A stretch of DNA of 64,000 nt from Zygaena filipendulae (lineage: Eukaryota > Arthropoda > Insecta > Lepidoptera > Zygaenidae), in assembly GCA_907165275.2 (NCBI GenBank), contig OU015660.1:196001-260000 (forward strand), given 5' to 3'. The position numbers were made by a program, and so were the translations under genes. The notes under the pieces were generated by a model. The model was not told the DNA's origin. It saw nothing but the letters and a program-made list of their open reading frames with translations, and ran no database searches. Within the stretch, counting starts at the first letter, position 1. The number at the start of each line of letters is the position of its first letter. Shown piece by piece: positions 9,301 to 48,500 of the stretch.

Positions 9301-9630
9301 TTGAAAGTCAATAACAAATACTACATGCAAGTTCTAGCCTCCCTGAAGCCTGAAAGTAAGTATCTTACAATTTGGGAGACTTTTAGAACTAAGTTCTTTA
9401 ACGCACGGTACGGATGGGAGTAAAAATTCATTTTTCGTCACGTCATATACGGCTGCTCTACGGAAAAACAAAGCAACTGTAATTTTTTTTCGAAATGAGT
9501 TTTGTACTTTTGCTCTTTTTCACGCACAACTTCCTTGCGCATAAATGACTGAACGGACTCAATTTAATATGGAAAAAACTTCGTTCTACCAAGTGTTCCA
9601 CTGCGCTCGCGCATTTTATTATGGTTTAGC

Positions 9631-9653
9631 CTCAGACGAAAATTTCGTCTGAG
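9631..9653. mobile_element. Micro-palindrome insertion a (8-bp TSD)
   Basis: A 23-bp palindrome, CTCAGACGAAA then A then its reverse complement. Flanked on both sides by GGTTTAGC (9623-9630 and 9654-9661). It has no room for anything but two terminal inverted repeats. Confidence 0.85.
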
Positions 9654-10153
9654 GGTTTAGCTTACCGTGCATTATTTATTCATTGAATTATAAAGTTGTT
9701 TCACTCCAAGCGCCTTCTGTTGTTGGAATTCAATAAAGTGCGACACAGTATCCCTTACTGGAAATCTTGCCATAAGCAAAATTATCGTTTTAACAATTTT
9801 TTTATTTAACTGATTTTTTAAACGTTCAAACTCTTAACTCTACTATAATTTTAATTTTTATATTTATTGGTTTTTACCTTTTAACCTATCTTGATAATGA
9901 TGATTTGCAAGAATAGAACACATTCCTACCTATATATTCCATATTTTGTGGAGCCATACGGCACACCTATAAGCAGGCATATACTTATACTTATAACAAC
10001 TGCTATTTAATTCATATTAATATATTCTCATACGGGTATAGTATGTTGTAGGCTGGCGTCATCCTCCCGGCCGGTGGCGTGATCTCATCGACCTATACAG
10101 GGTGCCAACCATGCCAACTTACGAGGCTGTTACTTTTTTTTTGTCAGGGTGCG

Positions 10154-10187
10154 AAAATATCCGATATATCAAAATATCGGATATTTT
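10154..10187. repeat. Perfect AT-rich hairpin
   Basis: AAAATATCCGATAT, a 6-nt loop, then its exact reverse complement: a 14-bp stem. No target duplication is visible. Confidence 0.7.
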
Positions 10188-10295
10188 TGTTATATATCCA
10201 TTTTGTATGACATAAATTTTATTATTTTATAGTATTTTGATTATACTGTTTGCAGTGTTTGCATATTATGTATTTCATAAACATAAAAAATTAGG

Positions 10296-10390
10296 GAGCG
10301 TCCATTAATCACGTGAGGCTCGAAAGAGGGGGCAGGGGTTCGGAAAAATCACGAATTATTACAAGTAGGGGAGGGGGGGGATATGATTTA
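10296..10390. mobile_element. Possible one-ended TIR element fragment
   Basis: AGGGAGCGTCCATTAATCACGTGA followed by a G-rich run recalls the end of the element at 49956-50494 (GGGGTCATCCATAAAGTACG with a C/G-rich interior). No matching second end was found. Confidence 0.35.
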
Positions 10391-13331
10391 TTCATTAATT
10401 TTTCGCTTATCCTCATTCCAAGGACAATGTCCTTTACATATATTCATGTAAAAATGTGTTTTTTTTACATCTTCCTTTATTATTTTTTATGCCAGTCAAA
10501 AACTACCACCTTGCCTATCTAATGTCTATCTGGACATTTTTTATTTCATCGCACCCTGTTTTTTGTATAGAAATACTCTTTATAAGCTACAATAATTGTA
10601 GGAGAGCGATTTTTCGATACTGGGCATATAATTTAAATAAATAAATTAAAACCACGACATGATTACGATAAATTTTCTCGATAGGAAATAAGATAAAGTG
10701 TATAACCTCCGACCTCCTCTACGACAAGTATCTTTTATAAAAAAAATCAAAATTTAATTTCATAAAGCGGGATCGATATTCAGTAAATATTGGCAAAGAG
10801 CTAGAATGTACACGTTCCCTTGCTATCGCCGTTTGTTCTCCATTGAACTATTTTTCTACATAGCTCTAATCTCTTATCTACTTTGGAGCTAAGTTTGAAG
10901 ATGTTGGGGTGGAGAAATGAAACGCGCAGTGTGTTACAAAAAGTACAACTCTATTACAGAGGGCGGTCTCCGCGCGCCGCCGCCCGCCCCCCGCGCCGCC
11001 CCGCCCCGTCCGCGCGCCGGGGGCGGGGGCGGGCCAGGGCGGGGCGCCGCGGGGGCGGGGGGCGGCGCGCCCTGAGAATTTACAAAAAAGAAAAACACCG
11101 TCCGGCACAAACTTAAGACCCCGTTCGCGAAACGCGTCACGATTGATTTATATAATTGAAAATATATTTCTCAAATACGATGTCAATATAGGTAATTTAT
11201 TAATTCTAATTCACAACATGAATACTATTTAAATATTTACTTATTTATCAATGCAAAAATGTAACAGGGGTCTGAAATTTGTTAACAATTCGACGTACAA
11301 TTTCGGTTCGGAGCGGGCTCGCCGCTCCCGGAGCGGCTATATTAGGTATATCAAGTATACATAATGTAGTACATGGATGTTATAATAATATGTGGTGGGA
11401 GTACTGTACAGTCAGCAAGAGAAATATGTAACCACTTTTGACAGTTGTTCCGTCTTACTGCAATAGTAATAAAGTTCAACGGGTGACAACAGTGTTAACA
11501 TATTTTTGCCGGCGACTGTACAGTATGGCGGTCGCGCTCGCGCCTGTAGGGTGTGGGGCCCGATCGTGCGTACAATTAATGTATAAAATTGGTCGCCTAA
11601 ATATTTCGCTAAAACAATAAATAATAATAAATTGGAGGGCTGCGGATAACGAGTCCGAGCCCTGCAAGCGGCGCGCGACCGCCGCCGGGGCGCGGGCGGC
11701 GCGGGCGGCGCGGGCGGTGCGGGCTCGAGTGCTGGGGCGACGCTCCGCCCCTCGCTCGGCGGGACGCGGCCGCGCTGATCGACAACCAGGTAATACCTAC
11801 CCCGGCAGAGATAGTCGCTGCGGGACACACGAACACGAATGTCGAGCATATACATAGCTCAACAATCCCGCAAATTTTGGCTAATTATTACATGTTATTC
11901 GAGCTCTCGATAGCTCAATTTTAAAGTGATTTTACATTTAACTAATAATAAAAAAATATAAAAAAAAACACAATCACAAAGAAAAATCTTTAAATCAAAC
12001 ATGGGTTTACGCGGGTGAATAACCTTCTCATTTGATATTATGTCGGTGCGTCAGCGGTCAGCGGCAATAGGTGCAAAGGAAAGGGGCATTGAGTGACCCC
12101 CGGTGCATGGATCCGTCAGTGTCGGCAAATTGTGCGTTCAATTTTCATGACAATTTTTTTTAATTAAGTCAAAATTTGTGTTGTTTTTTTAGACATTTCA
12201 GACGAGAATCGAACACTGAATACCCTTATTCAATAAGTCTCTTGTTTAACCGTACACTGTATATTAATAGGACATAAAACACGATTTTGACGAGAAAATT
12301 ATGTATAATTTTTGAAAAATACCAAAGTAAAAAACAATAGGTATAAGTACATCTATTTCATTGAATAGTGGTGATTAAAAACTCTGAATGGAACAATACA
12401 TATTGTATTATTAACAGAATGACACCCATTAGCTCAGCCGTGTCCCCCCGAGGGAGTGCAGCAATATAAAACGCAGGTCCATCGTCTGCGTCGGGCCTAC
12501 AGCTGAGAACCCGTTCCCGGCACAGCCTTCGCTGCTCTCGTGTAAGGTTAGCCAAGTTTATAATGTCCATGAAACGCCACGTCACTTACATTAGCTAAGT
12601 ACATAATCACATAACATGTCCACTGATAATTTAATTCCCCACAGACGATTCCTGAAGTCACGTGACGTCACACCCTCACACCCCCGCACCCCCCCGCGGC
12701 GCGTCCCGGCGGGTCCACTTAAAAACATAGCATACATTTTCTTTTTAACATAATCGTCATAAAAAAAATATAGTATAACGTCGATAAATAATGTAAAAAT
12801 ATCCAATAATGTTCACAAATATAATATAGACGACCGTATGTTCGTCTGTTCTGCACAGAAAACATACGAAATGTGAATTTTGAAAGTGATTCCGTCCAAC
12901 ACAACAACATGGTTGTAGGCGATGACATCTCAATACGATAGGGTACCGCTGTCGGTACAGCCGCGACAGAAACACTACCTACTTCACAAACTGAATACAA
13001 AACAAGTTGGTATTGCATAATAATTATAACAGTCGTTAATTATGAAGAAATACAGTAATACGCTATGAATCGACAGATAATAACACAGTGTCCGAACATA
13101 AACCACCCTACTACATTATTCAGCGAACGTTTCCATTGAACAAGGTTCGAGTCCAGCAGGGGGCAGGGGGCTGGGGGCAGGGGGAGGGACGCTCGACACC
13201 GATACAGACGCCAGGTACCTACTGATAGTCACTAGATACATCGGAAAAGAACCACACACTATTATGATTCATTCACTATATTTTACGCATATAGCAAGCT
13301 GGTGTCGAAAGTAATCCGAATGCTGATTGTA

Positions 13332-13564
13332 CAGTGGGCCACATAGACAAGTAGATAAGTATAGGTACCACCTTTTAAAATTTATAATATTTGTAAAACG
13401 TCTGTATGAAAGTTGCCGTTTTTGCAGCTCCAATATTTGTTTTTCGCTTGTATGCGAAAAAGACAACTTATAACTGCAAAAACAGCAACTTATAACTTCA
13501 TACAGACGTTTTAACAAAATATTATAAATTTTAAAAGGTGGTATACTTGTCATGTAGCCCACTG
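13332..13564. mobile_element. Foldback MITE starting CAGTGGGC
   Basis: The left end CAGTGGGCCACATAGACAAG and the right end CTTGTCATGTAGCCCACTG are inverted copies. The arms continue through CACCTTTTAAAATTTATAAT and AAAACGTCTGTATGAA, giving about 85 bp per arm. TA precedes the left end and CA follows the right, so an eroded TA duplication (Tc1/mariner-like) is possible. Confidence 0.75.
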
Positions 13565-14430
13565 CACATTGTAGTGTGCCCTCCCTCCCCCCTGCCGCAA
13601 CATCTCCCCCTTCTGCTGTTAGCAAAATGTTACCACAACTATTGCTTTATTAAATACCATTAACAGTCTCATAAGACTATACACTCTTTACTATACTGTT
13701 ATAAAGCTTTAAGTTTTATAAACTGTTTGTAGAGCAGCCAATTTGCTAGTCGGGCCGAGATATTATAAACAGAGCTACATTTAAATGCACCGGTTTCGAG
13801 CCGTCACGCGTCACACTGCGAACAGACACATTCACCTACACTCGTTTTTTTATCAATTCATAATTGGTACAATGTACTAAATATACGTTATTTATATCGT
13901 GAATATAACTTGTAGCTATGTCTATGAAGAATAAACATATTATTTCCTCGAAAGTAAAATCCGTCCGCGATTCTCTATTACCTATTTACATTAATATTAA
14001 TTGCTTTTTTAATATTCCATTATTACTATTTTACATATTGTTATACAACGTGGAATCGAGGTGAAATAATGAAAGTATCGAATGTGTACAATGAAAGCAT
14101 TTATCTCATAAAACGATTATATCATGAATGAAAGATCAGACTTACAAAAAAATAATTAAGTCGCAATATTACGTAAATTTAATGCTATCGATCATTATAT
14201 TTATACAGGAATAGCTATGGTTTGGTAATTAAGCCAAATATTTTGCCAAATTTGCACCGGAATTTCAGTTATGAAAATTTAAAATTTTCACGTAACGCCT
14301 GAATTGCGTTTTATACATCTCGGTGAGCACACAAATTGTCACATAATATTTCGTTTCCACCTTGTATAATGAATATAAAGCGCAGCGCCTGCGCGCCGCT
14401 GGTCGGTGTTAGTGGGCGCCTGCGCCGTGC

Positions 14431-14480
14431 GGCGGGGGCGGGGGCGGGGGCGGGGGCGCGGGCGCGGGCGGGGGCCGCAT
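14431..14480 (+). repeat. G-run tract (potential G-quadruplex)
   Basis: Repeated GGGGGC and GCGGGC units with at least six runs of three or more G on the plus strand. It would be C-rich in a minus-strand transcript. Confidence 0.7.
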
Positions 14481-14725
14481 CGCATCAGCCCTCCCCTCCC
14501 CTCCCCCCCGCCCCCGCCGCACACACCCAACACGCGCGGGGCGGGGGGTGCACGCCTCTGTACATTAGTAATCAACATTCAGTTAGGTGTACAATGTTAG
14601 TGTTTAAAATATAAGACAAACAAATTCAGGTTGAAGAAAAACATGTTGAATGTAAAATTTGGACGAGTCCACAATAGATTTATATAGACTAACGCCTACG
14701 CCTACAGAGGGCGCGGCGGCGAGGC

Positions 14726-14760
14726 GCGCGGGGCGGGGCGGGGCGGGGCGGGGCGGGGCG
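14726..14760 (+). repeat. GGGGC tandem repeat
   Basis: Six or more consecutive GGGGC units, a strong G-quadruplex motif on the plus strand. Confidence 0.8.
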
Positions 14761-15837
14761 AGTGTAGGCGCGTCACGGGCGAGTCGCTCCATCGGACCCC
14801 AAGGGGAGCGTGGAGCTGGCCCTGCAACCACATCGCGGATGCTCGGCCGACAACGCGCAGCCCGGCCACTACTCAGGAGTATTCGGCCGACCACATCCAG
14901 CATCCCCCACCCCACCCCCACCCCCGACCCGCGCAACCCCGCGACCGCGCCACAACTAGCCGATACTACGCTAATTAATTTTCACATGTAAAAAAAGATT
15001 AATAATGTCTAAAACATAAATTAAATAATCACAATCGATTCTTACTCAGAAAGAGAAAACGTATATGTACCGTACTAAACGGTAAACGCTGATAAGAAAC
15101 ATCAACAGGTCGGCGCCAGCGCGGGCCGGCGCCGGCGTACGATATACTTGACACTCGTACTGTACTTGCGGAGGCCGCGAGCCGTGTATTGCGTCTCATC
15201 ACGTTACTAGATATTTTCCAGATTTAAAGTCTTCAAAGGAGGTCACATCGGAACAACTTATAATCTATACAAAGTCAAATTCGGGAGGGGCCGCCCCTCA
15301 GGCGACCTCGGCCGTAGACGGTGGCGCAGCGGCGCGGCGCGGCGGGCTGACTAGAGGCGCGCTGGGGCGGGGCGGCGCCTCGGGCGCGGGGGCGGCGCCG
15401 GCGCCGGCGCGGGCGGGCCCGGGCGGCCCGGCGGATACGTTAATAAAGAAAAGCAATACTGTACAAAATGACGATTATTTATAAGGAGTGAACGATCAGA
15501 CGGCGGGGCGGGGCGGGGCGGAGCGGCGCGCCCGGCGACGCTCATTCACTATCTAACTACTTAAATTAAACGAGAGAAGCGATATCGAAGCTCTTATGAA
15601 CGTTACAAACGGCGTCGACGCCGGGGGCGCGCGCCGGCGGGCGGGCGGCGCCGTGCTGCGGGCGAGCTGCGTCGAGCTGCGGGCGGACGGCGCCGGGCTG
15701 CGTGGCGGCCGCGCGCCCGCGCCTCCTCACCTGCACCTGGCGAGCAGAACGCGCGAACGGTGCCAGTTAGGCTGCGTTCTGAAACTACACACTTCGTGCG
15801 ATCTCGTGGTTGGGTGGGAAAAAAGTACTGTAGGTAC

Positions 15838-15870
15838 AGGGCAGTGGGCAGTGGGCAGTGGGCAGTGGGC
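15838..15870. repeat. GGGCAGT tandem repeat
   Basis: Four to five head-to-tail copies of the 7-mer GGGCAGT just downstream of the rin stop codon, probably in its 3' UTR or a 3' UTR intron. Confidence 0.8.
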
Positions 15871-15887
15871 ACCGGACTCACGTGCGG

Positions 15888-16034
15888 CTAGCGGCGGAAG
15901 GCGGCGCGCGGCTGGAAGGCGGCGCGGTGCGAGGAGAGCGGGCGGCGGCGCGGGGGCTCGCGGCCGCGCGTCTTCTTCTCCTCCACGTTCAGCTTGACGC
16001 CGTCCGCCGCGTCCGCCGGGAAGTACAGCGGCTG

Positions 16035-16066: not shown

Positions 16067-19000
16067 TTATTCGATACATTTATTTAGTGCCTCATAAATA
16101 TAAGGTGCGGACGAATTAACTGCAAATATTAACAAGCTTCAAAGTATACATACATATATACATGTTCATAAAATAAAAAGAAAAAATAAATAAATCAAAT
16201 AGAAAGCAACCTGTGAAGGCGTTAGGCTCTCGCCGCTCGATCGCTTTAAACACACATCGCCGCGCGCCTGTATCTTAAGGTCGATGACCTCGATCGTCGG
16301 TCGATCGAGATGACCAGCTGATGCATCGCTCGCGGCGTGTACCTTGTATACGTATTACTGAGCTACGTGTATTGTGAATGTTGTCGTAATGTTTTTTCAA
16401 TTAATTTCTTTTCCTCATAATTTGAAAAACGACTAAACGTTTTTTTTTTTTCGCTTATCCTGTTTGTTATAACTTATACTTTCAGCCCTTTAAATATTTG
16501 GAGCTAATTGTGCCACATCTCATATAGCCCACCGCGGCGTTGAGGCAGTCGTGCGCGGCCTGCGCGCTCTCGTAGGTGATGAACCCGTAGTTGGGGTGTC
16601 GCGGCGCGCCGGGCGCGGCCGGCTTGCTGTGCACGCGCAGCTCCGCCACGGGCCCGAAGCGCGCGAACAGCGCGCGCAGCTCCTCCTCGGTGGCCGAGTG
16701 CGGCAGGTTGCCCAGGAACAGCTGCTGCGAGTCCGGGTAGCGGCCGCCGCCGCCGCCGCCGCCCGCGCCGCGACCCTCTGCGGCGACAACGGCTCGTTGA
16801 AGACAGCGCGACACATCAACATCCATCAACATCATAATATTTGGGGTATGTTCCGTTATTACGTATAGCACTGCAGGCCCAGTGGCTCGCAGCGACGAGA
16901 AATTCGTTCCGTTATAACTTTCAGTATGCTGCCGCAATATCCGCAGTAGGCAGTATGACGCCAAATCATCGCCATTCGGTGAGCACTGGCATTTTCTAGG
17001 TAACCAGGTGTTCCGTGACCACCCTCGGAACAATAATCGGTCAATGAGTGGTCGAAAGCGTAACATGACAATGACATGGACGAAAGTATACTGGCCTGCG
17101 TCTGTTTTCAGTAATCAGTACAGTGAACTATATAGACATCACAGTGTACTCAATTGACGTCATACCTTACAGTGCTATCAGTAATACCGGAACATACCAG
17201 TATATTCTACATGTGTCAACCATTCCTCGGAATTTACCAAGTAACTTTGGCGGGGTCTGAAGGATTATGAAATCGGTTGGAGAGTGTCGTGTACCACCGG
17301 GCGGGTGCGGGTGCGGCCGGCGTCACGTGCGCCGGGCGTGATGTCCTGTACCTGTCTGCGGCTGCGCGTCGCGCGGCGGGCGCTGCGGGCGCGCGCGCGG
17401 CTCGAGCGGCGGCGCGGCGGGCGCGGGGGGCGGCGCGGGCGCGGCGGGCGCGGGCGCGGGCGCGGGCGGCGAGGGGCGCGGGGCGGGGCCGCTGGCGCCG
17501 CCCGACTTCAGCAGGTTGGCGTACGTCTTGGGCTCGTTGCTCGGCGCCGGCGGGCTCGGGGTCGACGTCGCCATCGCCGCGCCTGCACCTGTCACACGCC
17601 ACGCATTTTATTTTATTTTACTTTATTTAGAAAATCAACTGCTACAAAAATATAATAGACGAGTCGATCACAAATTTTTATACATAGGTAGTGGAATTAC
17701 AACAAAATCCATTGCCCAATAGGCAGCGAGAGCCTCTTACACAATGGAAATACAGTGAATATCTGGATACCCTCGAAAAATGTGTATTGTGATAAAAACT
17801 ATCCTATATAATGTATAGCTAGATTTTTGAGGACACCACTTTCTTCTATCTCTCCATTCATGTTTACGTATAACTAACAACGGTCTCGAGCCTCATTACC
17901 AGCTCACGTGTGAATAATCCTAGTTAGCGCAGGCATCTCACCTGGCTGCGGCTGCGCGGGCGGCGTGGGCTCGCGCTCGCTCTCAGGCTCGGGCTCCGGC
18001 TCGGGGGCGGGCGCGGGGTGCGCGGGCTCGGCGGCGAGGGCGGGGGCGGCAGCGGGCGAGGACACGCCCCCCTCGAGCGGCGCGGCGGGGGCCGGGGCGG
18101 GGGCGGCGGCGGCGGGGGCGGGCGCGGGGGGCGCCAGCGCCGGCTCCGGCTCCAGCTCGCGCTCGACTGCGGGGAACACTATTACAATCAATTACAACAT
18201 CTGCCTTTTCCTATTCAAAATGTATAAATCGCTCAACATTACGCACTATGTGTATAGGACATAGGTACCTATTTGTAATTTTATTTCTTAATCTCGTCGT
18301 TGTCATAGTAAACTGCTTAACATCCTATTAAAACTGAAATTTAAGGCCGAGTAAAATCACTCCATAAATCTTTAGATCGTTGAGTAATTTAAGGGAAGTG
18401 CTTTATCAAAACACATGCAAGTTAGTTGGAAAAGCGGAAAGGCGAAAGGGTTCTGAGTTATAGGTCCGTATTCCAAAAGGTTACTCAAGTCATGAATCTA
18501 GTTTTAAAACTAATTTCCAGTAAAGCTTTAATTTTAGAACTTTACTTGAAACGAGATTCATCAATCAACAATCAGCTGAGTTATTTCCTTATTCTAAAAC
18601 GACGCTTGAGTACTAATCTATACTCAAGCAAAGATTTGATCTTTGTTTACGTCTGTCATGTCAAGACCACTCAACCAATCAGAGCTCAAAATCTCTACTC
18701 AAGACTAGTTTCAACTGATTAGAACCAATCAGAGTTCAGAATCCCTACTCAAGACTCGTTTCAAGTGATTATAACTTAAAACGCATTCTATAATATGATG
18801 TACGCTCGAGTTATGATCTGAGCTTAAAACTAATCTCAAGTAAAACGTGATCTGAGTCACCTTCTGGAATACGGGCCATAGAGTGTCGAACACACTCACC
18901 TTGCAGGGCGGCCACCAGGTGGCGCGTGGCGTCCTCGTGGTGCGCGGCGGGCGGGTGGCCGTTCAGGTGCGGCAGGGGCGCGGGCGCGGGCGTGTGCGCG

Positions 19001-26511: not shown

Positions 26512-26566
26512 CACGTAGTGATTACCTTCTCCTCAGAAGAATTATTCTTCTGAGACCTTCTCTCTG
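26512..26566. mobile_element. Core-type micro-insertion A, carrying a nested micro-palindrome
   Basis: CACGTAGTGATTACCTTCTC...TCTG, 24 bp once the nested insertion is removed. Flanked by the 8-bp repeat GCCGTAGA (26504-26511 and 26567-26574). Confidence 0.8.
26532..26554. mobile_element. Micro-palindrome insertion d (8-bp TSD), nested
   Basis: CTCAGAAGAAT, one central base, then the reverse complement. Flanked by ACCTTCTC (26524-26531 and 26555-26562). The related copies at 28769 and 43645 show the site without the palindrome and with a single ACCTT(C/T)TC. Confidence 0.88.
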
Positions 26567-27987: not shown

Positions 27988-28515
27988 TAACTAGCTATGC
28001 CTCGCGGTTTCACCCGCGATAATTTCGGAGTTCCCGCATGAATCCCGGGATAAAAAGTACCCTATGTGCTTCTCTGTACCCCTGACAACGTGCACGTCAA
28101 ATTTCATTCAAATCCGTTCAGCCGTTTTTGCGTAATTGAGTAAACGTATGTGAGGATAAGAGCTCGAAAGCGTATTTTCATCCGACTTGCTTCAAATTTA
28201 TCGCCACTGTTCAGCTCCTATGTGTCTTAGCGTTATGTTATATATTTATTATTATAAATGATATTATAATTATTATATAGCCTATAACCTACCCAGGAGT
28301 ATGGACTACAATCGTACCAAGTTTGGTTAAAATCCCTTCACTAGTTTTTGACCCATGCGTTCACATACAGACAGACAGACAGATAGACAGACAAAAAATT
28401 TACTGATTGCTTTTTTGGCATCAGTATCGATCACCATTCATCCTCCAATATTAATTTTGAATATATTATATTCAATGCACAGAATTGACCTCTCTACAGT
28501 TTTATTAGAAGTATA
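27988..28515 (-). mobile_element. Composite Helitron-like element, copy 1
   Basis: Starts CTAGCTATGCCTCGCGG and runs through the standard core to GCGTAATTGAGTAAACG, then continues with about 300 bp not found in the other copies (AGGATAAGAGCTCGAAAGCG to AATTGACCTCTCTACA). The whole arrangement recurs at 33392-33862. Confidence 0.75.
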
Positions 28516-28768
28516 TACCTAGATATAGATAGACCGGAACCCATATTTTATAACTTTTATCATACCTATTCAAAAATGTAATATACCTAATTGAGGAGTT
28601 AGTTTGGTTTACATAATTATGAAAACAAAACTATCTCTTCAATTATTATCTTCCGTCCGAAAGCACGATGACAGGTCTAATAAGTTTCCTCTACTGTCCG
28701 CATAGTGTCTCTTTTGTCGATTTAGTGCTGCCACCTATAGTTCGTGCACGTTCCCTATTGGACACGAG

Positions 28769-28798
28769 CAGTAAAACGTAGTGATTACCTTCTCTCTG
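28769..28798. mobile_element. Core-type micro-insertion B (8-bp TSD)
   Basis: A 30-bp segment beginning CAGTAAAACGTAGTGATTAC and ending CTCTCTG. Flanked by GACACGAG (28761-28768 and 28799-28806). The CAG...CTG ends and 8-bp duplication resemble hAT insertions. Confidence 0.82.
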
Positions 28799-28869
28799 GA
28801 CACGAGTGAAAGCCGTACCGAAAACACGTGTGTCACGTTTTGTCTTCGTTATTTCAGTCACTTTTCAGC

Positions 28870-33075: not shown

Positions 33076-33391
33076 AAAAAATAAAAGTGACGTAATATGT
33101 TAAGCGTGGCTGTGATTGGTGTTTCGTTACAACGTTCCGTTTCATAAAATTAAAAGTTGAATATTTTGGAAACTATTGATAATTTTTTAGTAAAACTTTC
33201 ACGATAATGCTTTTCTAAGGTTCTATTTTTGAAATATTGACACAATTTCCTGTAACAAAATTTCATTCAAGTACCCTATTAGAATTGACTATAATGTTGC
33301 ACAGATTTTGCTTAAAGATTTTTGTGGGCATAACAAAAATAATTTAAAAACAGATGGAGTAGACAACACTAATGCATTTTTTTATTTCAGA

Positions 33392-33862
33392 ACTAGCTGT
33401 GCCCCGCGGTTTCACTCGCGGTAATTTTGGAGTTCCCGCCGGAATTCTGGGATAAAAAGTACCCTATGTCCTTCTCTGTACCCTGACAACGTGCATGCCA
33501 AATTTCATCCAAATCCGTTCAGCCGTTTTTGCGTGATTGCGTGCGTGCGTGCGTGCGAGGATAAGAGCTCGAAAGCGCACTTTCATCCAACTTGCTTCAA
33601 ATTTATCGTCACTGCTCAGCTCCCATGTGTCTTAGCGTTATGTTGCATAGCCTGCCCAGGAGTATGGACTACAATCGTACCAAGTTTGGTTAAAATCCCT
33701 TCAGTAGTTTTTGACCCATGCGTGCTCATACAAACAGACAAAAAATTTACTGATTGCATTTTTGGCATCAGTATCGATCACCATTCATCTCCCAATATTA
33801 ATTTTGAATATATATTCAATGTACAGAATTGACCTCTCTACAATTTTATTATATTATGTATA
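33392..33862 (-). mobile_element. Composite Helitron-like element, copy 2
   Basis: CTAGCTGTGCCCCGCGGTTT at the left, the standard core, a GCGTGCGTGC run, and then the same 300-bp extension as 27988-28515. It ends about 100 bp before the squid 5' UTR. Confidence 0.8.
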
Positions 33863-34098: not shown

Positions 34099-36812
34099 AT
34101 GGCTAATAACGATAATTTTGCACAAGACGTTACGGATAATCAACTTAACGGAAATGGAGAAAACGGTGGTGGCGATGGACAGCAAGACAGCATGAACGAA
34201 TCTTCAGGACGCGATGACGACAGGTATGTAAGCTTCTCTTTGTTAGGCATCTGTTCAAGGTATTTTTTTTATCTCGAATGATGTTAAGTTTAAATAATCT
34301 TTTGTTTAATTTCCGTGGTACCTATGCAAGTTAATTCCTTTCAGTTAGGCAGTTGTCGTTCGCTGCAATGGCGGCTATCCGGCATTACCGTTATCATACA
34401 TCGATAATTATCTGCGTGATCCTCTCTAAATTTAGTCTTCTAGCTTCTAGAATATGTTCTCCGCGTGGTTAATTTAGATTTCGATGTATTAGTTTCTAAA
34501 AATTTCAGGTAATTCACTGTTTAAATTTATAGATTATCGGCCGACAATTCTTGGGGCGCGTGAAGTAAATAAAATGGCGTCTAACCGCGCGTCACTTGCG
34601 CCCGGCACTGTTGTCCCGTTATTGATTTTTTGTGTTTTTCTTTTACAATCCATTCGGTCGGAATGTTACGTGTTTGAACCCTGATCAGTCAATTGAGGAA
34701 ATAAGTACTGATGTTAGGTATACTAAGCAAGATTTTAAATCGGTGATAGCGTGTAATGTCGCCGGCGTCAGCGGCGGAGTAGGCATAGGGTCGGGGTCAG
34801 GGCGGCGCCACTCAGCAGACGCGCCGCGTGCGCGGGGCGCGGGGCGGGGAGGGCGCGGGGCCGCCGCTGGCTACCGGCGCGGTGCGGGCGTCAGTTTGGG
34901 GCGAGACTAACGCTCTGTCTCTCTGCAGGTGTGAGCCTGCGCCGCCGCCGCAGCAGCCGCCGGAGGACCTCATGGTATATATCTGCTGGGCTCACACTAA
35001 ACTAAACTTCGACCAAACTGACAAAGTTTTGGCCACTTAATTTTGGGCCTCGTTTACACTTGCCAATTTCAAATCTTGCGATGATCACTGTAACATTCTT
35101 GTTTCATTTTCGTTGTCATTGGATAATGTAAAAATTTTTGCAGATTACCTTTAACTTACAGGTCTCAATTTGTTTTGCCGCAGTGCTTGGAGTTTGTTTT
35201 GAACAAAAATGTAGCTGTAAAGTACTGTAAACAAGTACTGCATAGTGTTAATGTTAAATAGTAATTTTTAAGTCAGTTTCAAAACCGACACACGTTTGAT
35301 TTGTTATACAAGTTTTTAATGTAAAAATGTTATAATGTTCACAGGAAACTTTTTGTTGGCGGCCTGAGTTGGGAGACCACTGAGAGTAAGTAACTGTTTT
35401 CTCCCTATTTACTGTTGATATTATTGCAATCATATTAGTTTACTACTACTACTGTAGTTGTTGTTTCACGCCCATATATTTGCGATTTCCTAAGAACTGA
35501 AATAACTATTTTATACACTTCCTATGCACAAATGTTGTTTATGTTTAGTACTAGCCGTGCCTGCAGTTTCACCCGCATGAGTTTCGGAATTTCTCAAGTT
35601 TTAGCAAGCTAAAAACATTTTTCTAAATGATGACATAACAGTTCTGCTTCTGAATGTTAATTGAAGAAAACTATACCCACATAACTGACAATCCTACTGA
35701 ATAGTTATTAAGTTTAAGTTGTCAGAACTCTATATTAACATTTTGAATAAAACAATTTCACAGAGGAATTACGTGATCACTTTGGAGCATTTGGTGAAAT
35801 TGAAAGTATCAATGTGAAGACTGACCCTAACACTGGCAGATCACGAGGGTTTGCTTTCATCGTGTTCAAGGCATCAGATTCTATCGACAAAGTGATGAGC
35901 GCTGGAGACCACACAATTAACAACAAGAAGGTTGACCCAAAGAAAGCTAAAGCTAGAAACGGAAAGATCTTTGTCGGTGGGCTCACAAGTGAAATCTCAG
36001 ATGATGAAATCAAGAACTACTTCAGCAGTTTTGGAACTGTAAGCTTAACTCTTATACACTTATATTATTTTAATGTTAGGTATTGTGTATTCAACTATTT
36101 AATACTCATAAGACAACAAATCAAGTTTATTTTTTGTGATGACAAATCCGGTTTTGGTGAGATAATTATACTCTTGACAATATCTGAAGAGGAATCCGGG
36201 CCACTGATAATAACCCCTGTAATATTTTAATAGACCTGCCCAGCTTTGATTTAGAAGTAAGTACTTATTATTCTTTCTACAGATCCTAGATGTCGAGATG
36301 CCTTTTGACAAGACCAAGAATCAAAGGAAAGGCTTCTGCTTTATCACCTTTGAATCAGAACAGGTCGTCAATGACTTGCTAAAGTCGCCCAAACAAACCA
36401 TCGCGGGCAAAGAGGTCAGTAGCTTGTATATAATGATAACCGTTTTAAAGATGTACCACTGATTGATCGATGGAAGGTTTGTGTTTGTGGCGTAGTGTCG
36501 CTAAAGTGTTGCGGTACGTTGCAGGTGGACGTGAAGCGCGCGACCCCGAAGCCGGACGGCCCCGGGGGCATGACGGGGCGCGGCGGGCGCGGGGGGCGCG
36601 GCGCGCGCGGCGGGCGGGGGGGCCGCGGCGGCTACGGCGGCCAGGGCCCGTGGGGCAACCAGGGCTACGGCGGCTACGGCTACGGCCAGGGCTACGGCGG
36701 TGGGTACGACGGCTACGGCTACGGCGGCTACGGATACGATGGCTACGGGGGCTATGGCGGTTACGATTACTCCGGATACCCGAATTACGGTAAACGCGGC
36801 AAGCAGTATTAG
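34099..36812 (+). CDS. sqd: Squid (hnRNP A/B family), short isoform
   Basis: Nuclear RNA-binding protein that, in Drosophila, acts in mRNA localisation, export and alternative splicing. Exons: 34099-34223, 35345-35385, 35764-36038, 36283-36414, 36525-36812, 861 nt, 286 aa. The N-terminus is acidic and Gly/Asn-rich (MANNDNFAQDVTDNQLNGNG). RRM1 has RNP2 KLFVGGL and RNP1 RGFAFIVF. RRM2 has KIFVGGL and KGFCFITF, with VDPKKAKARNGK as linker. After VDVKRATPKP comes an RGG-rich block, then a Gly/Tyr prion-like tail ending YGKRGKQY. All junctions are GT-AG and in frame. A polyadenylation signal AATAAA at 37571 suits this isoform, which reads through the donor at 36790. RNP motifs and linker match insect Squid very closely. 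The GC and codon bias is strong only in the last exon. Confidence 0.96.
34929..34974 (+). other. Candidate cassette (poison) exon in squid intron 1
   Basis: A strong pyrimidine tract and acceptor CTCTGTCTCTCTGCAG, then 46 nt (CEPAPPPQQPPEDLM in the exon 1 frame), then a donor GTATAT. Its length is not a multiple of three. Inclusion shifts RRM1 into a frame that stops within about a dozen codons of exon 2. Confidence 0.4.
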
Positions 36813-41026: not shown

Positions 41027-41779
41027 ATTAAGTCACCGGTCATGAGTGCCTCCCGCGCCTCTCGTCTCACCGCGCCGGGGGCACGTCATTCCATTCCACA
41101 TGTTAATAATATAAGAAAATAATTAAGATTCTTAAGGATAAAGGAAAATTGTCAAATGCAGCGACCGCACCGGGCGGCCGTCGCATCTTTTATTATACCG
41201 AATGGATTATATTAGATACCTTGAGTATTATTGCTGATTATAGATACAATTTTAGAGGCGTCATGTCAGTCGTACCCTTGTCTTTTGAACTGAAATATAT
41301 AGAGTAATGATAATTATATACAGAGTTAAAATTTCATTGATACAGCGCGCGTCCTGGCGGGCCCTTGCGTCCGGGAGTATACATAATATACGTATATGTA
41401 CCTAGTGTGCGTGCGTCTGTGCGTGCGAGCGTGATGCGTGCGTGGGAGCGAGCGAGCGAGCGAGTGACTGCGCCTCCCCTCTGCAGTGGATCGTTTGGAT
41501 CTCAATACTGAAATGTTGTACTTTTGTATGTTTAATTTGATATAAAACAATCTTAAATCATGTTTTTTATAAAAACTTTCATGGATGTGAATTTCCATTC
41601 AATAGGGTTAAAATAAATTTTTAGACTAAGTTATCTTGACATGAACAAACTGCTGAAGATATACAAAGTTGTATGTCCGCAATAAAAATGTAAATAAAAT
41701 ATTGACTTTTTGTGTGTGTTTACTGTGGGTACGAAATATAAGGTGTCCTTCCTGCTTGAAGTCGACCAGTATCATAGCA

Positions 41780-42030
41780 ATATTAAGGGCAATGACCTCG
41801 ATCGAGCAGCTGATCCATCGCTCGCTGTGTGCGTAGCGCGTGCCTTGTACTCATATACATAATATAATTGAGCTACGTGTATTGTGTACCTTGTGAATGT
41901 AATTGTAATGATTTTTCAAATTAATTTGTTTTCCTCATATTCTGAAAAACTACCGAACTTATAATATTATTTTTTCGCTTATCCTGTTTGTTATAACGTA
42001 TACTTTCAGCCCTGTAAATTTTTGCATTTA
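41780..42030. repeat. Dispersed repeat, partner of 16271-16500
   Basis: See the partner entry. Here it lies between squid and the chitin-binding gene. Confidence 0.75.
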
Positions 42031-42250
42031 TTTAACCACGTGTTATACATATTGGCTTAGACTCCTCCAAGAGTAAATCGAGACGCTTAAACAAGAACTT
42101 TGTTCCATAAAAACTTTGTTAGTAAAGCAATAGTAAATCTTGAAAACCTATGTACCTACTTGACATAAGGACGTCCTAATCAAGGTTTTATATCAATAAG
42201 TACTTCGTACTTGAGAGATAAGCACACTTTAAATGTACATATAAGGGTAT

Positions 42251-42260
42251 TTATATAAAT
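42251..42260 (+). promoter_or_regulatory. TATA box of the chitin-binding gene
   Basis: TTATATAAATAA about 30 bp before the likely start site and 75 bp before the ATG at 42334. Confidence 0.65.
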
Positions 42261-42333
42261 AAGTGGGACTAGGTACCGAATGCTTCATAAGCACAATAAA
42301 TTGTACCAACCGCAAACGATTCCTAAACTAGTG

Positions 42334-45104
42334 ATGGCCGCCTTTAATTTTGTTTTTGTGTTACTGCTGGGTCTATGCGTTGTCGAGGGCCGAGTGTTCC
42401 AGGGGAGGTGAGTAGTGAATTTTTTCAATAGATGGGTATTTATCTATTGTGTGTGTAGTATTGTGGGTAAAATTTCACCTTGCCCTCATCCGTACCGTGC
42501 GATAAAAAAGGTACTTCGTTCTAATAGTATTATATATATTATCTGTGGTTCTAATAATATAGTAGTTATTACTTAGGTAGGTACTCAGAAGAATAACTAA
42601 GCTATTCTTCTGAGGGTAGGTAGTTATTTGTTGAACAAGAGAGCTAAGTTAGGTATTTCTTGCGTGTGCTTAGAACCCCGAGCGTAGTGAGAGTTCATAA
42701 CACTGTTCGCGTATAACACCAAATTTTTCACTTGACAGGAGAAAATGCAAGATTTTCTGTCTGTTAAAACCTCAGAAGAAATGAAGAAATCAGTCAGCTC
42801 GAAAAGTCATATCTTCTTGAGCACATAAAAAACCGTCACTGAAAATTATTGTCCAATACAGCACCTTTTAACACAACAAAATCCATTTTAAACCATTTTT
42901 CATCGACATGAAAATAAATGACCGAACCGCCATCTTTGATTCCCGCCAAAAAACTCAAATGCAAGATTTACTAGAAAGTAGAAACGTTTGTATCTACTGG
43001 CAGCATACAATGTAGGTTCATAATACTTGAAGAAGTTTTATACTTTTGAGTTTTGGCGCGATTTTAAGCAGAAAAGACGTCAGTTTTATTTCTTTGTTTT
43101 GCGAATTAGTTTATCGTGATTAATATTGTGTGAATATGGTGAATTTTGCATAATAGTGATCCATTAGTGATGAACAGTGGGCGGAAACAGTGAAATAAGA
43201 TGAAATGGGGCGTTCATTGGGAGGTTTTCGTTTTACGGTCCATGGTTTTACTATACAACTTCCCACAGAGCGTCCTATTAAAGTTCAACTGTGAACTGTG
43301 AAGATTTGCTGCCAAAAGTTCCGCCAAAGCATCGAAATGCATCTTACCAATGCATTTCAATGTAAATAACTTCAGAAGAAGAAAAATACTACTGACTTGG
43401 CTGTATGGACTTAGTTCCTTTGCCTTCCCCATTGGGGTAAAATTAACAAAAAAAAATGAAGAAGTTTTATGCGCGCTCCACATTCGCGTTCGCGCGCGAA
43501 GCTTGCGCGAAGCCGCGAAACAGCCGCGAACCACCCGCGAAGCCGCGAAACACCCGCGAACCATGTGTTTGTGTGTGTGAATCTCGCGCGAATGTGGAGC
43601 GCGCTTTATAGTTTTAAGTCCACGGTTGAGCAATCTGCAATAGGCACGTAGTGATTACCTTTTCTCTGGCAATAGGTATTTCTCTCAGAAGATGCTTTAG
43701 TTATTCTTCTGAGGTATTTCTTTTATCCATTGACACAATACCGATGCTTTACAATGATTAACTGATATAAAAATATATTATTACTAGCTGTCCCCCGCGA
43801 TTTCTACCGCGGTAATTTCGGAGTTGCCGCGGTAATTCCGGGAAAAAAGTGCTGTAGTTTACGGTGATAAGCAGTTCCCCGCATTAAATTCCGCAGTTCC
43901 CGCGGGAATTCCGGGATAAAAACTATCCTATCTTTTAAGTTGGACCATGTTATAAATGGTTACAAAATTTTATCAAAATCCGTTCAGTAGTTTCGGAGTC
44001 CATCGCGGACAAACAACGTGACACGTGATTTATATATGGACATAGATAAGCAATAGTGTGTTAACCCACACTGGAGAAATTTTGATTAAAGTTTTAAAAT
44101 TATAGCGCCATTTTGTGTCAAATTTTTTATGTTCAATATTTAGTTACATATTTAAACACATAATTAAAAAACGTTCTCTAACTCTCAATAAAATGTTCTG
44201 AATCAATAACTTCATTTTGTGGTTTAACATGTTATTGCTTATCTGCGTCCATATTATATTAGAAGATAAGATATGATGAAGTTGTTGCAGAGATTTTTTT
44301 CCCCGTTTATTTAACCTTTATAGGAAAGGCTTACAGTACCTACATGACCCATACTGCCATTGCAATGAGAATATAACCACTGCGTGCTGCGTATTGTTGA
44401 CCGGTTAAGGTCAAAGAGAATAATTATTATTAGTGAAGGTCGTAACAAATGCACGCCCGTCGCGATTCAATTCGATATTTCCATCACCGTTCAGCAGCCA
44501 TTTTGTTTACCAAGATATAGTTTTCGAGAGAACCGTGTTTTAACTTGGCGAACAATCTAAAGTCATTGGCATTTTGCCATAATTATAGAAGTAAAAGAAT
44601 GAGTTATTATAATATGTAATTACTAAAACATTGTTATTGGCATAATTAAATGCGTTAAATCATGACAGTTGCCATAAATTAAGGAGGAAGAACAATTTAT
44701 ATCCTCAGACGAAATAACTTTTTATTTCGTCTGAGTTTATATCATCACAATCGTATCGTTGCCTCGCCACCAGATTACCAAATCAATATGGTTGCCCTTG
44801 TATGAGCTGCCATTTACGCATCATGTTTTCTCCTAGAGTGCTGAACGGTACAGGCAACGAGATCCCGCAGCTGTGCGTGGCCCAGCCGGTGACGGCGGTG
44901 TCGTGCGCCGACGCGCCCTCCGGCGAGGACGCGGACGGCCTGCTGCCGCACCCGGACGACTGCCGGCTCTTCTACTACTGCTTATCGCCGGAGCTGCCGC
45001 CCGTGTGCCGCCAGTGTCCCGCCGACCTCTACTTTAACCCAGAGAAGCGGGTGTGCGACAACCCTAAGGACTCGGGATGCTTGCAGCCTTCTCTATTCGT
45101 CTAA
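42334..45104 (+). CDS. Secreted protein with one chitin-binding type-2 (peritrophin-A) domain
   Basis: Two exons, 42334-42407 and 44837-45104, join in frame (342 nt, 113 aa). Residues 1-19 are a clear signal peptide (MAAFNFVFVLLLGLCVVEG). The mature part holds a CBM14/ChtBD2 pattern: C-x18-C-x5-C-x11-C-x12-C-x7-C, from SCADAPSG through DDCRLFYYC, RQCPADLYFNPEKRVC and DSGC, with the usual aromatic residues around the third cysteine and the F/YFNP motif. One extra cysteine lies between the third and fourth (PVC), and another comes before the domain (QLC), so they may pair. The protein probably binds chitin in peritrophic matrix or cuticle, but with a single domain it could be a small regulator or signal. 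Poly(A) signal AATAAA at 45286. The intron is packed with repeats. Confidence 0.88.
42584..42614. mobile_element. Micro-palindrome insertion e (8-bp TSD)
   Basis: CTCAGAAGAATA, a 7-nt spacer, then TATTCTTCTGAG. Flanked by GGTAGGTA (42576-42583 and 42615-42622). Confidence 0.85.
43150..43445. repeat. Dispersed repeat family, copy 3
   Basis: The longest copy of the family of 19340-19670: CCATTAGTGATGAACAGTGG through TTGGCTGTATGGACTTAGTT to CTTCCCCATTGGGG. Confidence 0.7.
43470..43604. mobile_element. CGCGAA-rich TIR MITE, copy 2
   Basis: GCGCGCTCCACATTCGCG and CGCGAATGTGGAGCGCGC are exact inverted ends. TTTAT flanks both sides. The body is CCGCGAAACA(C/G)CCGCGAA repeats. Confidence 0.8.
43645..43668. 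mobile_element. Core-type micro-insertion C (8-bp TSD)
   Basis: 24 bp, CACGTAGTGATTACC...CTCTG. Flanked by GCAATAGG (43637-43644 and 43669-43676). Confidence 0.85.
43684..43713. mobile_element. Micro-palindrome insertion f (8-bp TSD)
   Basis: CTCAGAAGATG at the left and TTATTCTTCTGAG at the right. Flanked by GTATTTCT (43676-43683 and 43714-43721). Its left duplication shares one base with the right duplication of insertion C. Confidence 0.85.
43782..44037 (-). mobile_element. Helitron-like (Lep1-type) copy with internal duplication
   Basis: Starts ACTAGCTGTCCCCCGCGATT. The GTTCCCGCGG...ATTCCGGGA block occurs twice, then ATCCGTTCAGTAGTTTCGGAG. The right end is cut by the MITE at 44038. Confidence 0.65.
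44038..44250. mobile_element. TIR MITE with 4-bp target duplication, copy 2
   Basis: Same ends as 4057-4293, 213 bp, flanked by ATAT on both sides. Confidence 0.85.
44520..44660. repeat. Dispersed repeat, partner of 28870-29020
   Basis: CGTGTTTTAACTTGGCGAAC and AAAACATTGTTATTGGCATAA match the partner block. Confidence 0.6.
44704..44735. mobile_element. Micro-palindrome insertion b (8-bp TSD)
   Basis: CTCAGACGAAATAA...TTATTTCGTCTGAG, 32 bp. Flanked by TTTATATC (44696-44703 and 44736-44743). Confidence 0.88.
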
Positions 45105-45285
45105 TTTATCTTACCACCTACAAAACCTGACTTACCCGCACGTTAATATGATTTCATCAATCAATTTCTAATTTTTTTTTTAATTAGATCCCTAAATTCC
45201 CAATTGGCTGGGGAGTCAAAGATTATTATTATTTATCTATCCATGTTAATTTCTCTAAATTTCAAAATGACTGATTATATTGTAA

Positions 45286-45291
45286 AATAAA
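45286..45291 (+). terminator. Poly(A) signal of the chitin-binding gene
   Basis: AATAAA 182 nt after the stop codon. Confidence 0.65.
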
Positions 45292-45590
45292 GGCTGAGTT
45301 TTATTTATTAGGTCGTCCCTCCGTTTTAAAGGTATTAAGCCGTATAAATAAAACGAGCATACAGCGATTGCCTACCGTACCTACATTAAATTTTGATATC
45401 AGATCCTTTAGACCATTCAACTAATAATGTCTTTGGATTAATTCAGTAGGTAGGTATTTAGCTATTTAAATAGATACCGAGTGTCGAAGGTGTCGAATTC
45501 CAATCATAAAATCAAAAAGAAAACGTCAATGTCATCAGATAAAACTTTATAGACCATAGACAACACAGGGCTGGCGCGTGGCGTGGCGCG

Positions 45591-48500
45591 TCAACAGGGG
45601 GCGCCGCTGGACGACGCGTACAGAAGGTCCAGGGCGTTGACCAGCGCGCGGTAGTTGACCTGGAGGGGTCATATTATGGATAGTTGATACCTACTCAGTA
45701 CTCACAACCAGCACTATCGGAGACAATAATGCTCCATAGTCCGTAGTCACAAAGTTATCACTCAAAATAAAAAAAAAACAAAATCAATCTTTATAATTAT
45801 GTATCATTCTTATTTAAAAATGGATTGCTGTTCGTTCGTCTCGCTAAAACTCGAGAATAGATGCACCGATTTGGATAATAAAAAAAAATTGAAATTTGAA
45901 ATATGTATTTGTGGAAGCTCAGGGAAGGACCAAGAAGTAAATTAGGCTACTCTGAAGTTCCTGCGAGAATTCCGAAACTCACGCGGGTGAAACCGCGGGG
46001 CACAGCTAGTCCTACTTAATATTATAAACGCGAAAGTTTGTAAGAATGTATGTATGGATGGATGGATGTTTGTTACTCTTTCATGCAAAAACTACTGGGT
46101 GGATTTTAAATAAAACTTTACAATAATATAGCTTATACTTCAGATTAACACATAGGGTACTTTTTATCCCGGAATTCCCGCGGGAACTCTGAAATTAACG
46201 CGGATGAAACCGCGAAGCACAACTAGCAATATATAAAAGAAACTAGTGCCACCCGCTTTAAAAAAACACAAATTATGTATCTTCTAAGATATTTCAGTAT
46301 AATAAATACTTATGAAAGAAATTATTAGATGTGTGAAGTGCATTGTGGCGATCCTTGCGGAGACCAACCTATATCTAGCGATGGATGTCTTTATTAGGTA
46401 CTAGTATCTAGCGATGGATGTCTTTATTAGATACTAGCTGCACCCCACGGTTTTACCCGCGGTAATTTCGGAGTTCCCGCGGGAATTCCGGGATAAAAAG
46501 TATCCTATGTCTTTCTCTGTACCCCTGACAACGTGCATGCCAAATTTCATCCAAATCCGTTCAGCTGTTTTTGCGTGATTGAGTAACAAACATCCAAACA
46601 CCCACACTTTCACATTTATAATATTAGTAGGATAATGATCATAAAAAAGATTAGGTAAACAAAAAGTACCGGAAACGGCCGTTTTGCCCTAACGTGCCCT
46701 GGGGCTAAGATGCGCAACGCGATAAAATTTTATCGAGCCATTTTATCGATGCTCGTCGACAAAGCCAAACAATATGTCGACGAGAATCGATAAAATGGCT
46801 CGATAAAATTTTATCGTGTTGCGCATCTTAGCCCGGCTAAGCACTTAATACAAATTTTCTACCAGGTGAGTTTCTTAAATAAAATATCTAGCTACGATTT
46901 CTTACGGGTGGCCTCAGACGAAATTTCGTCTGAGCGGGTGGCGTCTACTGTGTCTACTGTGTCGCTGTGCGTGCGCGAGTGTGTGAGCGCGTGTGTGTAT
47001 GTTCACGTGCGTGTGAGTGCGTGTGCGTGCGCGCGCGTGCGTCACCTCGTCCCCGCAGCCGCGCCGGTAGCCGAAGCACTTGTAGACGAGGTCCCGCTCG
47101 CGCGCCGACACCAGGTGCAGCAGGTTCCGCTGGCACAGCGCGCGCTCCACCGACACGCGCGGCAGAGTGCCGCACCGCTCCTTGTCTATGTCCTGCCGCC
47201 ACACGCACCGACCATAGATATAATTTAAAAAGCCAACTAACTACTTAACTAGCCACCGGTACTGTGAACGTGCCATATTATAGTCAAGGTGGTTAGGGAC
47301 GATTAAGGAAGGTGTTCGGTACTCGATTTTCGTCTCAATTTTATAAAAAAAATATTAACTGGATTTTTCACGTAAAGACAAATTAATCACGAAAATTTAG
47401 TGGGCAAGTAGCTGGCGCGCTGCAAATCAAATGTAGGACCTATGTAAAGGTCATTCACCGGCGTAAAATCAAGTTTTTGAATACGTTTTTCTCTGTTACT
47501 GCTATTTATTACTGATTTTATTATTGTTTTTATTGGTTATTACGTAAGCATAAATCATCAAGGGTTTCAATGCGTCTCTCATATTGTTCATAGTTTGTTC
47601 CGTCTCCAGACAACCATAACGTTAAATAATTAACAAGAATATAACGATTTGTTAACATGTACCTACATGTAAGTGATAAGAGTGAATTGAGGAAGCGCAG
47701 ATAAAATGGAGTAGGTACCTACCTTATCAAACTCGGTTTGTTATCATAATATTGTGATTCTAGGTAAACACTAATAGTCAAATGAATCGACAGGTGCTCG
47801 AGCAAACATAACGCTAGAGGACATTGTTAAACAGCGTCATCATATTATATTTACCTTTTTTTGTAGGTACGTACTTAAGATACATATAGGTATTAGGCAC
47901 AATGTCTCGCGTATTGAAGCCAAGAAAACCAGAGCCCTCAGCTCTTCTCGCGTCAGGGCGCGGCCGGCGCTAACCTTGAACACCTCGAGTATGTTGGACA
48001 GCTGGTCGGGGAACTTGGCGAGCTTGCGCAGCGCCGCCGAGACGACGCTCCTCTCCTCGAAGTTGAGGAAGTTGAGCGGCGAGTCGAGCGTGGGCACGTG
48101 CGGCACCGGCGCCAGCAGCGGCGCGCGCTCCAGCCCCGCCTGCGCCTGCGCCTCGCCCACCGTCGCGCAGAAGCGCTCGTACTCCACCAGGCGCCGCCGC
48201 CCCGGGCACGCGAACCTGCGCCCACGCGACGCGCAGCAGCGCTCGAGCACACGGCAGGCGTACGCCGCGCGCCGTACACAGGCTTGTGCCTTATACAGTT
48301 GTAGAATAGAATAGAATACTCCTTTTTGTACTACAGTGTACACCAAACGTTACAGTAAGTAGGTGTGTTCACATTAGATCGTATAATTTGAATAAGTCAT
48401 TCGAAAGGTGGTCTTAGCGCTTTACTAGCGATCGTTTCCAGACAACCTATACCCACAGTGCTATATACTAATTACAGGAAAAAGTCAAGTGCAGCTACTA

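What the first reader, a model, noticed from the sequence alone, without database searches (positions are those of the whole stretch)
9623..46942. Six 22-32 bp palindromes, each with a perfect 8-bp target duplication
At 9631, 26532, 42584, 43684, 44704 and 46913 there is a tiny palindrome with constant ends, CTCAGACGAAA or CTCAGAAGAA(T). Each is flanked by a different perfect 8-bp direct repeat (GGTTTAGC, ACCTTCTC, GGTAGGTA, GTATTTCT, TTTATATC, CGGGTGGC). Constant ends with variable duplicated flanks mean insertion, not local slippage. The smallest is 22 bp, just two inverted repeats back to back. The 8-bp duplication points to hAT-type or similar transposition. Classical excision footprints would carry palindromes derived from the flank, not a fixed sequence. 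These may be the smallest mobile units still moved in trans, or the residue of a very precise internal-deletion process.
Basis: seen in the sequence. Interest (0 to 1): 0.88.

Follow-up and report, generated by a model that had tools for sequence, protein, structure and literature searches.

The report
Scars of departed P-type transposons
Six tiny hairpin sequences in a moth or butterfly genome are best read not as miniature jumping genes but as repair scars left where a transposon resembling the fruit fly P element jumped out.

Summary
Six palindromes of 22-32 bp with ends CTCAGA(C/A)GA are each flanked by a different, perfect 8-bp direct repeat. 100 shuffles give none, and 0 of 52 similar hairpins from prokaryotic and viral contigs carry the repeat. 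One of the six sites has two uninterrupted paralogous copies in the window.

The interpretation changes. These are most likely excision footprints. Drosophila P transposase leaves 17-nt terminal-repeat tails beside the 8-bp duplication; end joining then yields duplication, part of one end, part of the other, duplication (papers). All six fit: end pieces of 9-17 nt joined blunt, through 1-2 nt of microhomology, or with 1-4 nt of filler; total under 34 bp. All six junctions differ, which suggests separate repair events rather than copies of one tiny element. One of the two end types resembles the P terminus; the other does not.

No parent element or transposase was seen, and eleven requests to search the whole genome did not complete, so the family assignment is inferred and the density outside this window is unknown. 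Host: Lepidoptera.

The parts
9623..9661 (.). Footprint 1, end type A: 8-bp repeat GGTTTAGC at 9623-9630 and 9654-9661; 23-bp interior 9631-9653; retained ends 11 + 12 nt, blunt join
26524..26562 (.). Footprint 2, end type B: repeat ACCTTCTC; 23-bp interior 26532-26554; retained ends 11 + 13 nt sharing 1 nt (T)
28767..28799 (+). Uninterrupted paralogous copy of the 26532 target (ACGTAGTGATTACCTTCTCTCTGG): an empty site
42576..42622 (.). Footprint 3, end type B: repeat GGTAGGTA; 31-bp interior 42584-42614; retained ends 17 + 12 nt with 2-nt filler GC
43641..43683 (+). Second paralogous copy of the 26532 target, uninterrupted at the equivalent position (ACCTTTTC, one substitution); its last 8 bases are the left duplication of footprint 4
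43676..43721 (.). Footprint 4, end type B: repeat GTATTTCT; 30-bp interior 43684-43713; retained ends 9 + 17 nt with 4-nt filler TGCT
44696..44743 (.). Footprint 5, end type A: repeat TTTATATC; 32-bp interior 44704-44735; retained ends 17 + 14 nt with 1-nt filler T (or 18 + 14 blunt)
46905..46942 (.). Footprint 6, end type A: repeat CGGGTGGC; 22-bp interior 46913-46934; retained ends 12 + 12 nt sharing 2 nt (AT)

Best explanation
Each palindrome is the repaired donor site of a cut-and-paste DNA transposon of the P-element type. Step 1 (shown by the duplications, and by empty paralogs at one site): an element with ends CTCAGANGAA... inserted and duplicated 8 bp of target. Step 2 (inferred): its transposase cut the element out with a stagger of about 17 nt inside each end, leaving 3' single-stranded tails made of the terminal inverted repeat next to each 8-bp duplication. 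Step 3 (inferred from the junctions): the two tails were trimmed and joined by polymerase-theta-type or other end joining, with 0-2 nt of microhomology or 1-4 nt of filler, leaving a 22-32 bp near-palindrome that probably cannot itself move. At least two related families or subfamilies were active: end A CTCAGACGAAATAACTT and end B CTCAGAAGAATAACTAA.
For: (1) All six interiors are 22-32 bp, within the 34 bp that two 17-nt tails allow, and none of 240 same-ended pairs spanning 33-8000 bp has the 8-bp repeat. (2) All six decompose into a prefix of the end (9-17 nt), a junction, and a suffix (12-17 nt): one blunt; 1-nt microhomology T; 2-nt microhomology AT; fillers of 1, 2 and 4 nt. (3) The two long type-B footprints agree for exactly 17 nt and then diverge; this comparison is not capped by my choice of a 17-nt end. 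(4) All six junctions differ. (5) Published repair products of Drosophila P excision have the same anatomy: 8-bp duplications kept, up to 17 nt of each end, AT the commonest short microhomology, small insertions (PMC2895639 Table 1 and PMC5466332 Table 1). Of the 66 isolates in Table 1 of PMC2895639 (Rad51-deficient flies), I counted the 44 that keep both duplications with part of the ends: interiors 7-44 bp, median 30, 24 of 44 within 22-34 bp. (6) End A aligns with the D. melanogaster P end CATGATGAAATAACATA (shared GAAATAAC; 0.56% of 5000 shuffles score as high). (7) P superfamily duplications are 7-8 bp (PMC5199201, passage). P elements are annotated in the lepidopteran Helicoverpa armigera (PMC7764229, passages), and the P superfamily is listed as present in all arthropods surveyed there (PMC6327564, one passage).
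Against: No parent element, transposase or full-length terminal repeat was seen, so the ends are defined from the footprints themselves. This is partly circular: nt 15-17 of end A rest on one site, and a retained length above 17 could not be reported because both ends were set to 17 nt (site 44704 could be 18). End B does not resemble the P end beyond chance (18.6% of shuffles score as high). The P target-site motif, its letters recalled, is not enriched (P = 0.23). Both long type-B footprints have GC soon after nt 17 (GC; AGCA), so the tail could be 19-20 nt. Six footprints and no same-ended element in 64 kb is surprising for P elements, whose excision gaps are often repaired by copying (PMC2895639 passage). 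In that paper 20 of 66 isolates used long microhomology and lost most of the ends, and some carried inserts of 5-15 nt; neither kind is seen here, and my scans would miss the first kind. The published junctions come from repair-deficient flies. The whole genome could not be searched.
Confidence: 0.8

Rival explanations
1. Ultra-short non-autonomous elements: two inverted repeats back to back, still inserted in trans by a transposase that needs only about 11 bp per end.
For: Each has a perfect 8-bp duplication and intact outer ends; one of six sites has empty paralogs.
Against: Six of six interiors differ, with no repeated master copy; sizes stop below 34 bp with no same-ended pair up to 8 kb carrying the repeat. 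From general knowledge (recalled), known transposases need more than 11 bp per end, and P transposase binds internal sites.
Confidence: 0.08
2. Excision footprints of another superfamily with 8-bp duplications (hAT, Merlin, Sola1, MULE) whose transposase also leaves element ends behind.
For: Duplication length alone does not decide the superfamily, and end B is not clearly P-like. Muta1, a mosquito MULE, makes 8-9 bp duplications (PMC5225508, passages).
Against: hAT forms hairpins on the flanking DNA and leaves random footprints at NTNNNNAN targets (PMC3878927, passages); 0 of 6 duplications fit that motif. Muta1 excision is mostly precise when the duplication is present and otherwise gives small deletions, which suggested cuts outside the TIR. 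No passage I saw describes another superfamily leaving about 17 nt of each end; Merlin and Sola1 excision was not looked up.
Confidence: 0.1
3. Internal-deletion derivatives formed by interrupted gap repair inside the element, frozen in place and never excised.
For: Such deletions are common for P elements (recalled) and also keep the ends and the duplication.
Against: Gap-repair deletions should leave a broad range of sizes, mostly hundreds of bp (recalled); here 6 of 6 are at most 32 bp and 0 of 240 same-ended pairs spanning 33-8000 bp carry the repeat.
Confidence: 0.05
4. Chance hairpins or hairpin-forming regulatory sequences.
For: Similar hairpins occur in bacterial and viral contigs.
Against: 0 of 52 of those carry an 8-bp repeat against 6 of 6 here; 0 in 100 shuffles.
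Confidence: 0.005

Closest known systems
Drosophila melanogaster P-element excision footprints (17-nt 3' tails repaired by end joining; PMC2895639, PMC5466332)
   Same: 8-bp duplication kept on both sides in most listed products; up to 17 nt of each terminal repeat; short AT microhomology, blunt or small-insertion joins; median interior 30 bp among the 44 isolates counted
   Different: Different end sequence (CTCAGA... instead of CATGATGA...); lepidopteran host; found in a genome assembly at six sites in 64 kb rather than recovered in a repair-mutant assay; no parent element seen
Galileo, P superfamily (PMC4168063, abstract and passages)
   Same: Superfamily proposed here; duplications of 7, sometimes 8 bp
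   Different: Galileo duplications in D. willistoni are mostly 7 bp with consensus GTATTAC, and its terminal repeats are long; the duplications here are 8 bp with no such shared consensus
hAT elements and their footprints (PMC3878927, passages)
   Same: 8-bp duplications
   Different: hAT footprints come from flank hairpins, not fixed element ends; 0 of 6 duplications fit NTNNNNAN
MITEs (PMC5199201, passages)
   Same: Inverted repeats plus target duplication, no coding capacity
   Different: The averages quoted there for six insect MITE superfamilies are about 370-480 bp; these are 22-32 bp with six different interiors

Membership tests
P-type excision footprint | Intact 8-bp target duplication on both sides | tested here: met
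   6 of 6 perfect
P-type excision footprint | Interior made only of the two element ends, at most 17 nt each, plus 0 to a few nt | tested here: met
   6 of 6 decompose so; ends 9-17 nt; but the ends are inferred from the footprints and were capped at 17 nt in the script
P-type excision footprint | Tail length of 17 nt | tested here: inconclusive
   Two type-B footprints share exactly 17 nt and then diverge, but GC near the junction in both allows 19-20, and 44704 allows 18
P-type excision footprint | Independent junctions with microhomology or small insertions | tested here: met
   Six different junctions
P superfamily transposon | THAP-type P transposase encoded by a full-length element with the same ends | not testable with these tools
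   No same-ended element in the window; window ORFs were not scanned as a whole for transposase (10 ORFs only); eleven identical whole-genome requests did not complete
P superfamily transposon | Terminal repeat related to known P ends | tested here: inconclusive
   End A similar (0.56% of shuffles as high); end B not (18.6%)
P superfamily transposon | 14-bp palindromic target-site motif centred on the duplication | tested here: inconclusive
   Not enriched at six sites, P = 0.23; existence of the motif in PMC4168063, its letters recalled from memory
hAT transposon | Duplication of the type NTNNNNAN | tested here: not met
   0 of 6; motif as printed in PMC3878927
MITE (mobile) | Multiple copies sharing an interior | tested here: not met
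   Six of six interiors differ; only 64 kb examined

The most novel reading that the evidence does not exclude
A lepidopteran genome in which P-type excision scars far outnumber the elements that made them: a dense, letter-perfect record of recent, repeated excision repaired by end joining instead of copying from a template. Scars could then be used to count past transpositions, to infer the ends and cut offset of an unseen transposase, and to read natural end-joining outcomes genome-wide.
Probability: 0.45. Interest if true: 0.7.

Novelty: new member of a known kind. Interest (0 to 1): 0.55.

Why it matters
If the density here is typical, which is untested, excision footprints are a recognisable class of genomic sequence that repeat annotation will tend to miss because they are so short. 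They reveal transposon families no longer present at a locus, show the terminal repeat and probable cut offset of an unseen transposase, and give a natural sample of end-joining outcomes in a non-model insect. They also warn against reading such palindromes as the smallest mobile elements.

Tried and rejected
Searched for longer elements with the same ends in the window: none. One search tested spans from 38 bp up and one search repeated it from 33 bp. Searched papers for the end sequences as strings: 11 papers held one of them, and by title and abstract none is about a eukaryotic transposon (listing only). Searched IMG/VR for the 17-nt ends: 2 and 5 contigs; in the stretches held, each had a single unpaired match with up to 3 mismatches allowed, so no element. 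Searched IMG/VR and GTDB for the palindrome pattern: used as a control only. Tested P target-site preference: not enriched. All six duplications begin with G or end with C; no significance test was made. Empty-site search: one of six sites had paralogs spanning the junction; the other five had none in the window. Considered hAT, MULE, a mobile micro-element and gap-repair deletions; reasons are under rivals. Looked for papers on natural P-type footprints or tiny palindromic elements: 0 papers; 4; 6; 20 of 27 listed; 0; by title and abstract none describes them, but two papers in the listing (PMC4423477, PMC5023962) survey DNA-transposon excision and its repair genome-wide in rice, so natural excision scars as such are not new. 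These are listings in an open-licence PMC library. Papers opened: PMC2895639, PMC5225508, PMC4168063, PMC6562904, PMC3878927, PMC5466332, PMC7764229, PMC5199201, PMC6327564 (passages only; for PMC2895639 also abstract and outline) and PMC8230255 (no passage found).

Rows dropped: of the 66 isolates in Table 1 of PMC2895639 I left out 22 before the length count: 20 long-microhomology, 1 with one shortened duplication, 1 with a lost duplication. Tables 2 and 3 of that paper and the tables of PMC5466332 were seen but not counted. In some searches no palindrome was dropped for lack of flanks (52 of 52 used).

Full report
OBSERVATION. The six palindromes and their flanks are as described. Each interior (23, 23, 31, 30, 32, 22 bp) sits between two identical 8-bp words that differ from site to site. 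The repeat is exactly 8 bp at five sites and coincidentally extendable by 2 bp at 43684. A relaxed pattern finds these six sites and no others, against 0 in 100 dinucleotide-preserving shuffles. A scan that knows nothing of the end sequence returns the same six plus one unrelated foldback; a looser one returns the six plus one at 828 with 5-bp ends. As an outside control I scanned IMG/VR and GTDB contigs for the same palindrome pattern: 52 matches, 51 distinct with their flanks, 0 with a perfect 8-bp repeat, the best having 6 of 8 matching positions. Several of the 52 come from the same genome records, so they are not all independent.

HOST. The window is lepidopteran. An ORF with an RRM domain at 16482-17114 (minus) matches a Papilio xuthus ras GTPase-activating protein-binding protein at 91% identity over 38% of the query; Spodoptera exigua (88%) and Manduca sexta (78%) follow among the named hits, ahead of named beetle hits (60% and lower). 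Pfam also finds RRM stretches in the ORF at 35751-36230, which reads like squid (name recalled), and a chitin-binding domain at 44718-45104; 10 ORFs were scanned.

INSERTION IS REAL. With the interior and one duplication removed, the 26532 target matches two other copies of the same repeat in the window: 28767-28799 is uninterrupted through ACGTAGTGATTACCTTCTCTCTGG, and 43641-43683 is uninterrupted at the same point with one substitution in the 8-mer. So something inserted there and duplicated ACCTTCTC. The last 8 bases of that second copy are the left duplication of footprint 4. The other five sites have no paralog spanning the junction in the window.

WHAT THE INTERIORS ARE. Two end types explain all twelve termini: A, CTCAGACGAAATAACTT, and B, CTCAGAAGAATAACTAA. 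Decomposition: 9631 = 11 + 12 blunt; 26532 = 11 + 13 sharing T; 42584 = 17 + GC + 12; 43684 = 9 + TGCT + 17; 44704 = 17 + T + 14; 46913 = 12 + 12 sharing AT. The script caps retained length at 17 because the ends were set to 17 nt; independently of that cap, the two long B footprints share exactly 17 nt and then diverge. No interior occurs twice. None of 240 CTCAG...CTGAG pairs spanning 33-8000 bp carries an 8-bp repeat with up to 2 mismatches. A mobile micro-element should show repeated interiors; an internal-deletion series should show larger sizes. Neither is seen. Only 64 kb was available, so both statements are limited to the window.

MECHANISM. In Drosophila, P transposase leaves 17-nt non-complementary 3' tails of the terminal repeat at the donor site, next to the 8-bp duplication (PMC2895639 and PMC5466332, passages and tables seen). 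Most repair products listed there have the form duplication, part of one end, short microhomology or insert, part of the other end, duplication. Of the 66 isolates in Table 1 of PMC2895639 (Rad51-deficient flies), 44 keep both duplications with some end sequence; their interiors run from 7 to 44 bp, median 30, with 24 of 44 in the 22-34 range. Of the other 22, 20 used long microhomology and lost most of the ends; my scans would not recognise that kind. The commonest short join is an AT microhomology, the kind seen at 46913.

FAMILY. In favour of the P superfamily: 8-bp duplications (P is 7-8 bp, PMC5199201, passage); end fragments of up to about 17 nt; similarity of end A to the P terminus (0.56% of 5000 shuffles score as high). 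Not helping: end B is not significantly similar (18.6%), and the P target motif, letters recalled, is not enriched (P = 0.23). P elements are annotated in Helicoverpa armigera (PMC7764229, passages), and the P superfamily is listed among those present in all arthropods studied (PMC6327564, one passage). No transposase was seen. I therefore hold 'works like a P-element footprint' firmly and 'the parent is a P superfamily member' as likely but unproven.

CAVEATS. The ends are reconstructed from the scars. Both long B junctions contain GC after nt 17 (GC; AGCA), so a 19-20 nt tail with no filler is possible. The absence of any same-ended element in the window is unexplained. Six perfect duplications (48 of 48 positions identical) suggest that the events are recent. 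Density in one window that drew attention because of these sites should not be extrapolated. Genome-wide surveys of natural transposon excision exist for rice (PMC4423477, PMC5023962; listing only), so the general idea is not new.

Noticed in passing
46702-46834: A 133-bp near-perfect foldback (two 60-nt arms, 97% complementary, 13-nt loop) ending about 70 bp before the left duplication of footprint 6; whether it has a target duplication was not tested.
   Followed up: partly
27989-28081, 33391-33483, 43782-43874, 46432-46524, 50084-50176, 58788-58880, 58950-59042, 59072-59164, 61233-61325: Dispersed repeat family containing CCCCGCGGTTTCACCCGCG-like and AATTCCGGGATAAAAAGT-like stretches, 61-89% alike to the reference copy, with inverted copies too; type not identified.
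   Followed up: no
55114-55409 and 60061-60345: Two nearly identical (98-99%) copies of a roughly 300-bp sequence about 4.9 kb apart: a recent mobile element or duplication.
   Followed up: no
[not shown]
   Followed up: no
8136-8178: Weak candidate for a scar of another family: 8-bp repeat TACCTACC around a 27-bp interior with only 4-bp matching ends; could well be chance.
   Followed up: no
42576-46942: Four of the six footprints lie within 4.4 kb, possibly local hopping or a favoured target region; not tested.
   Followed up: no
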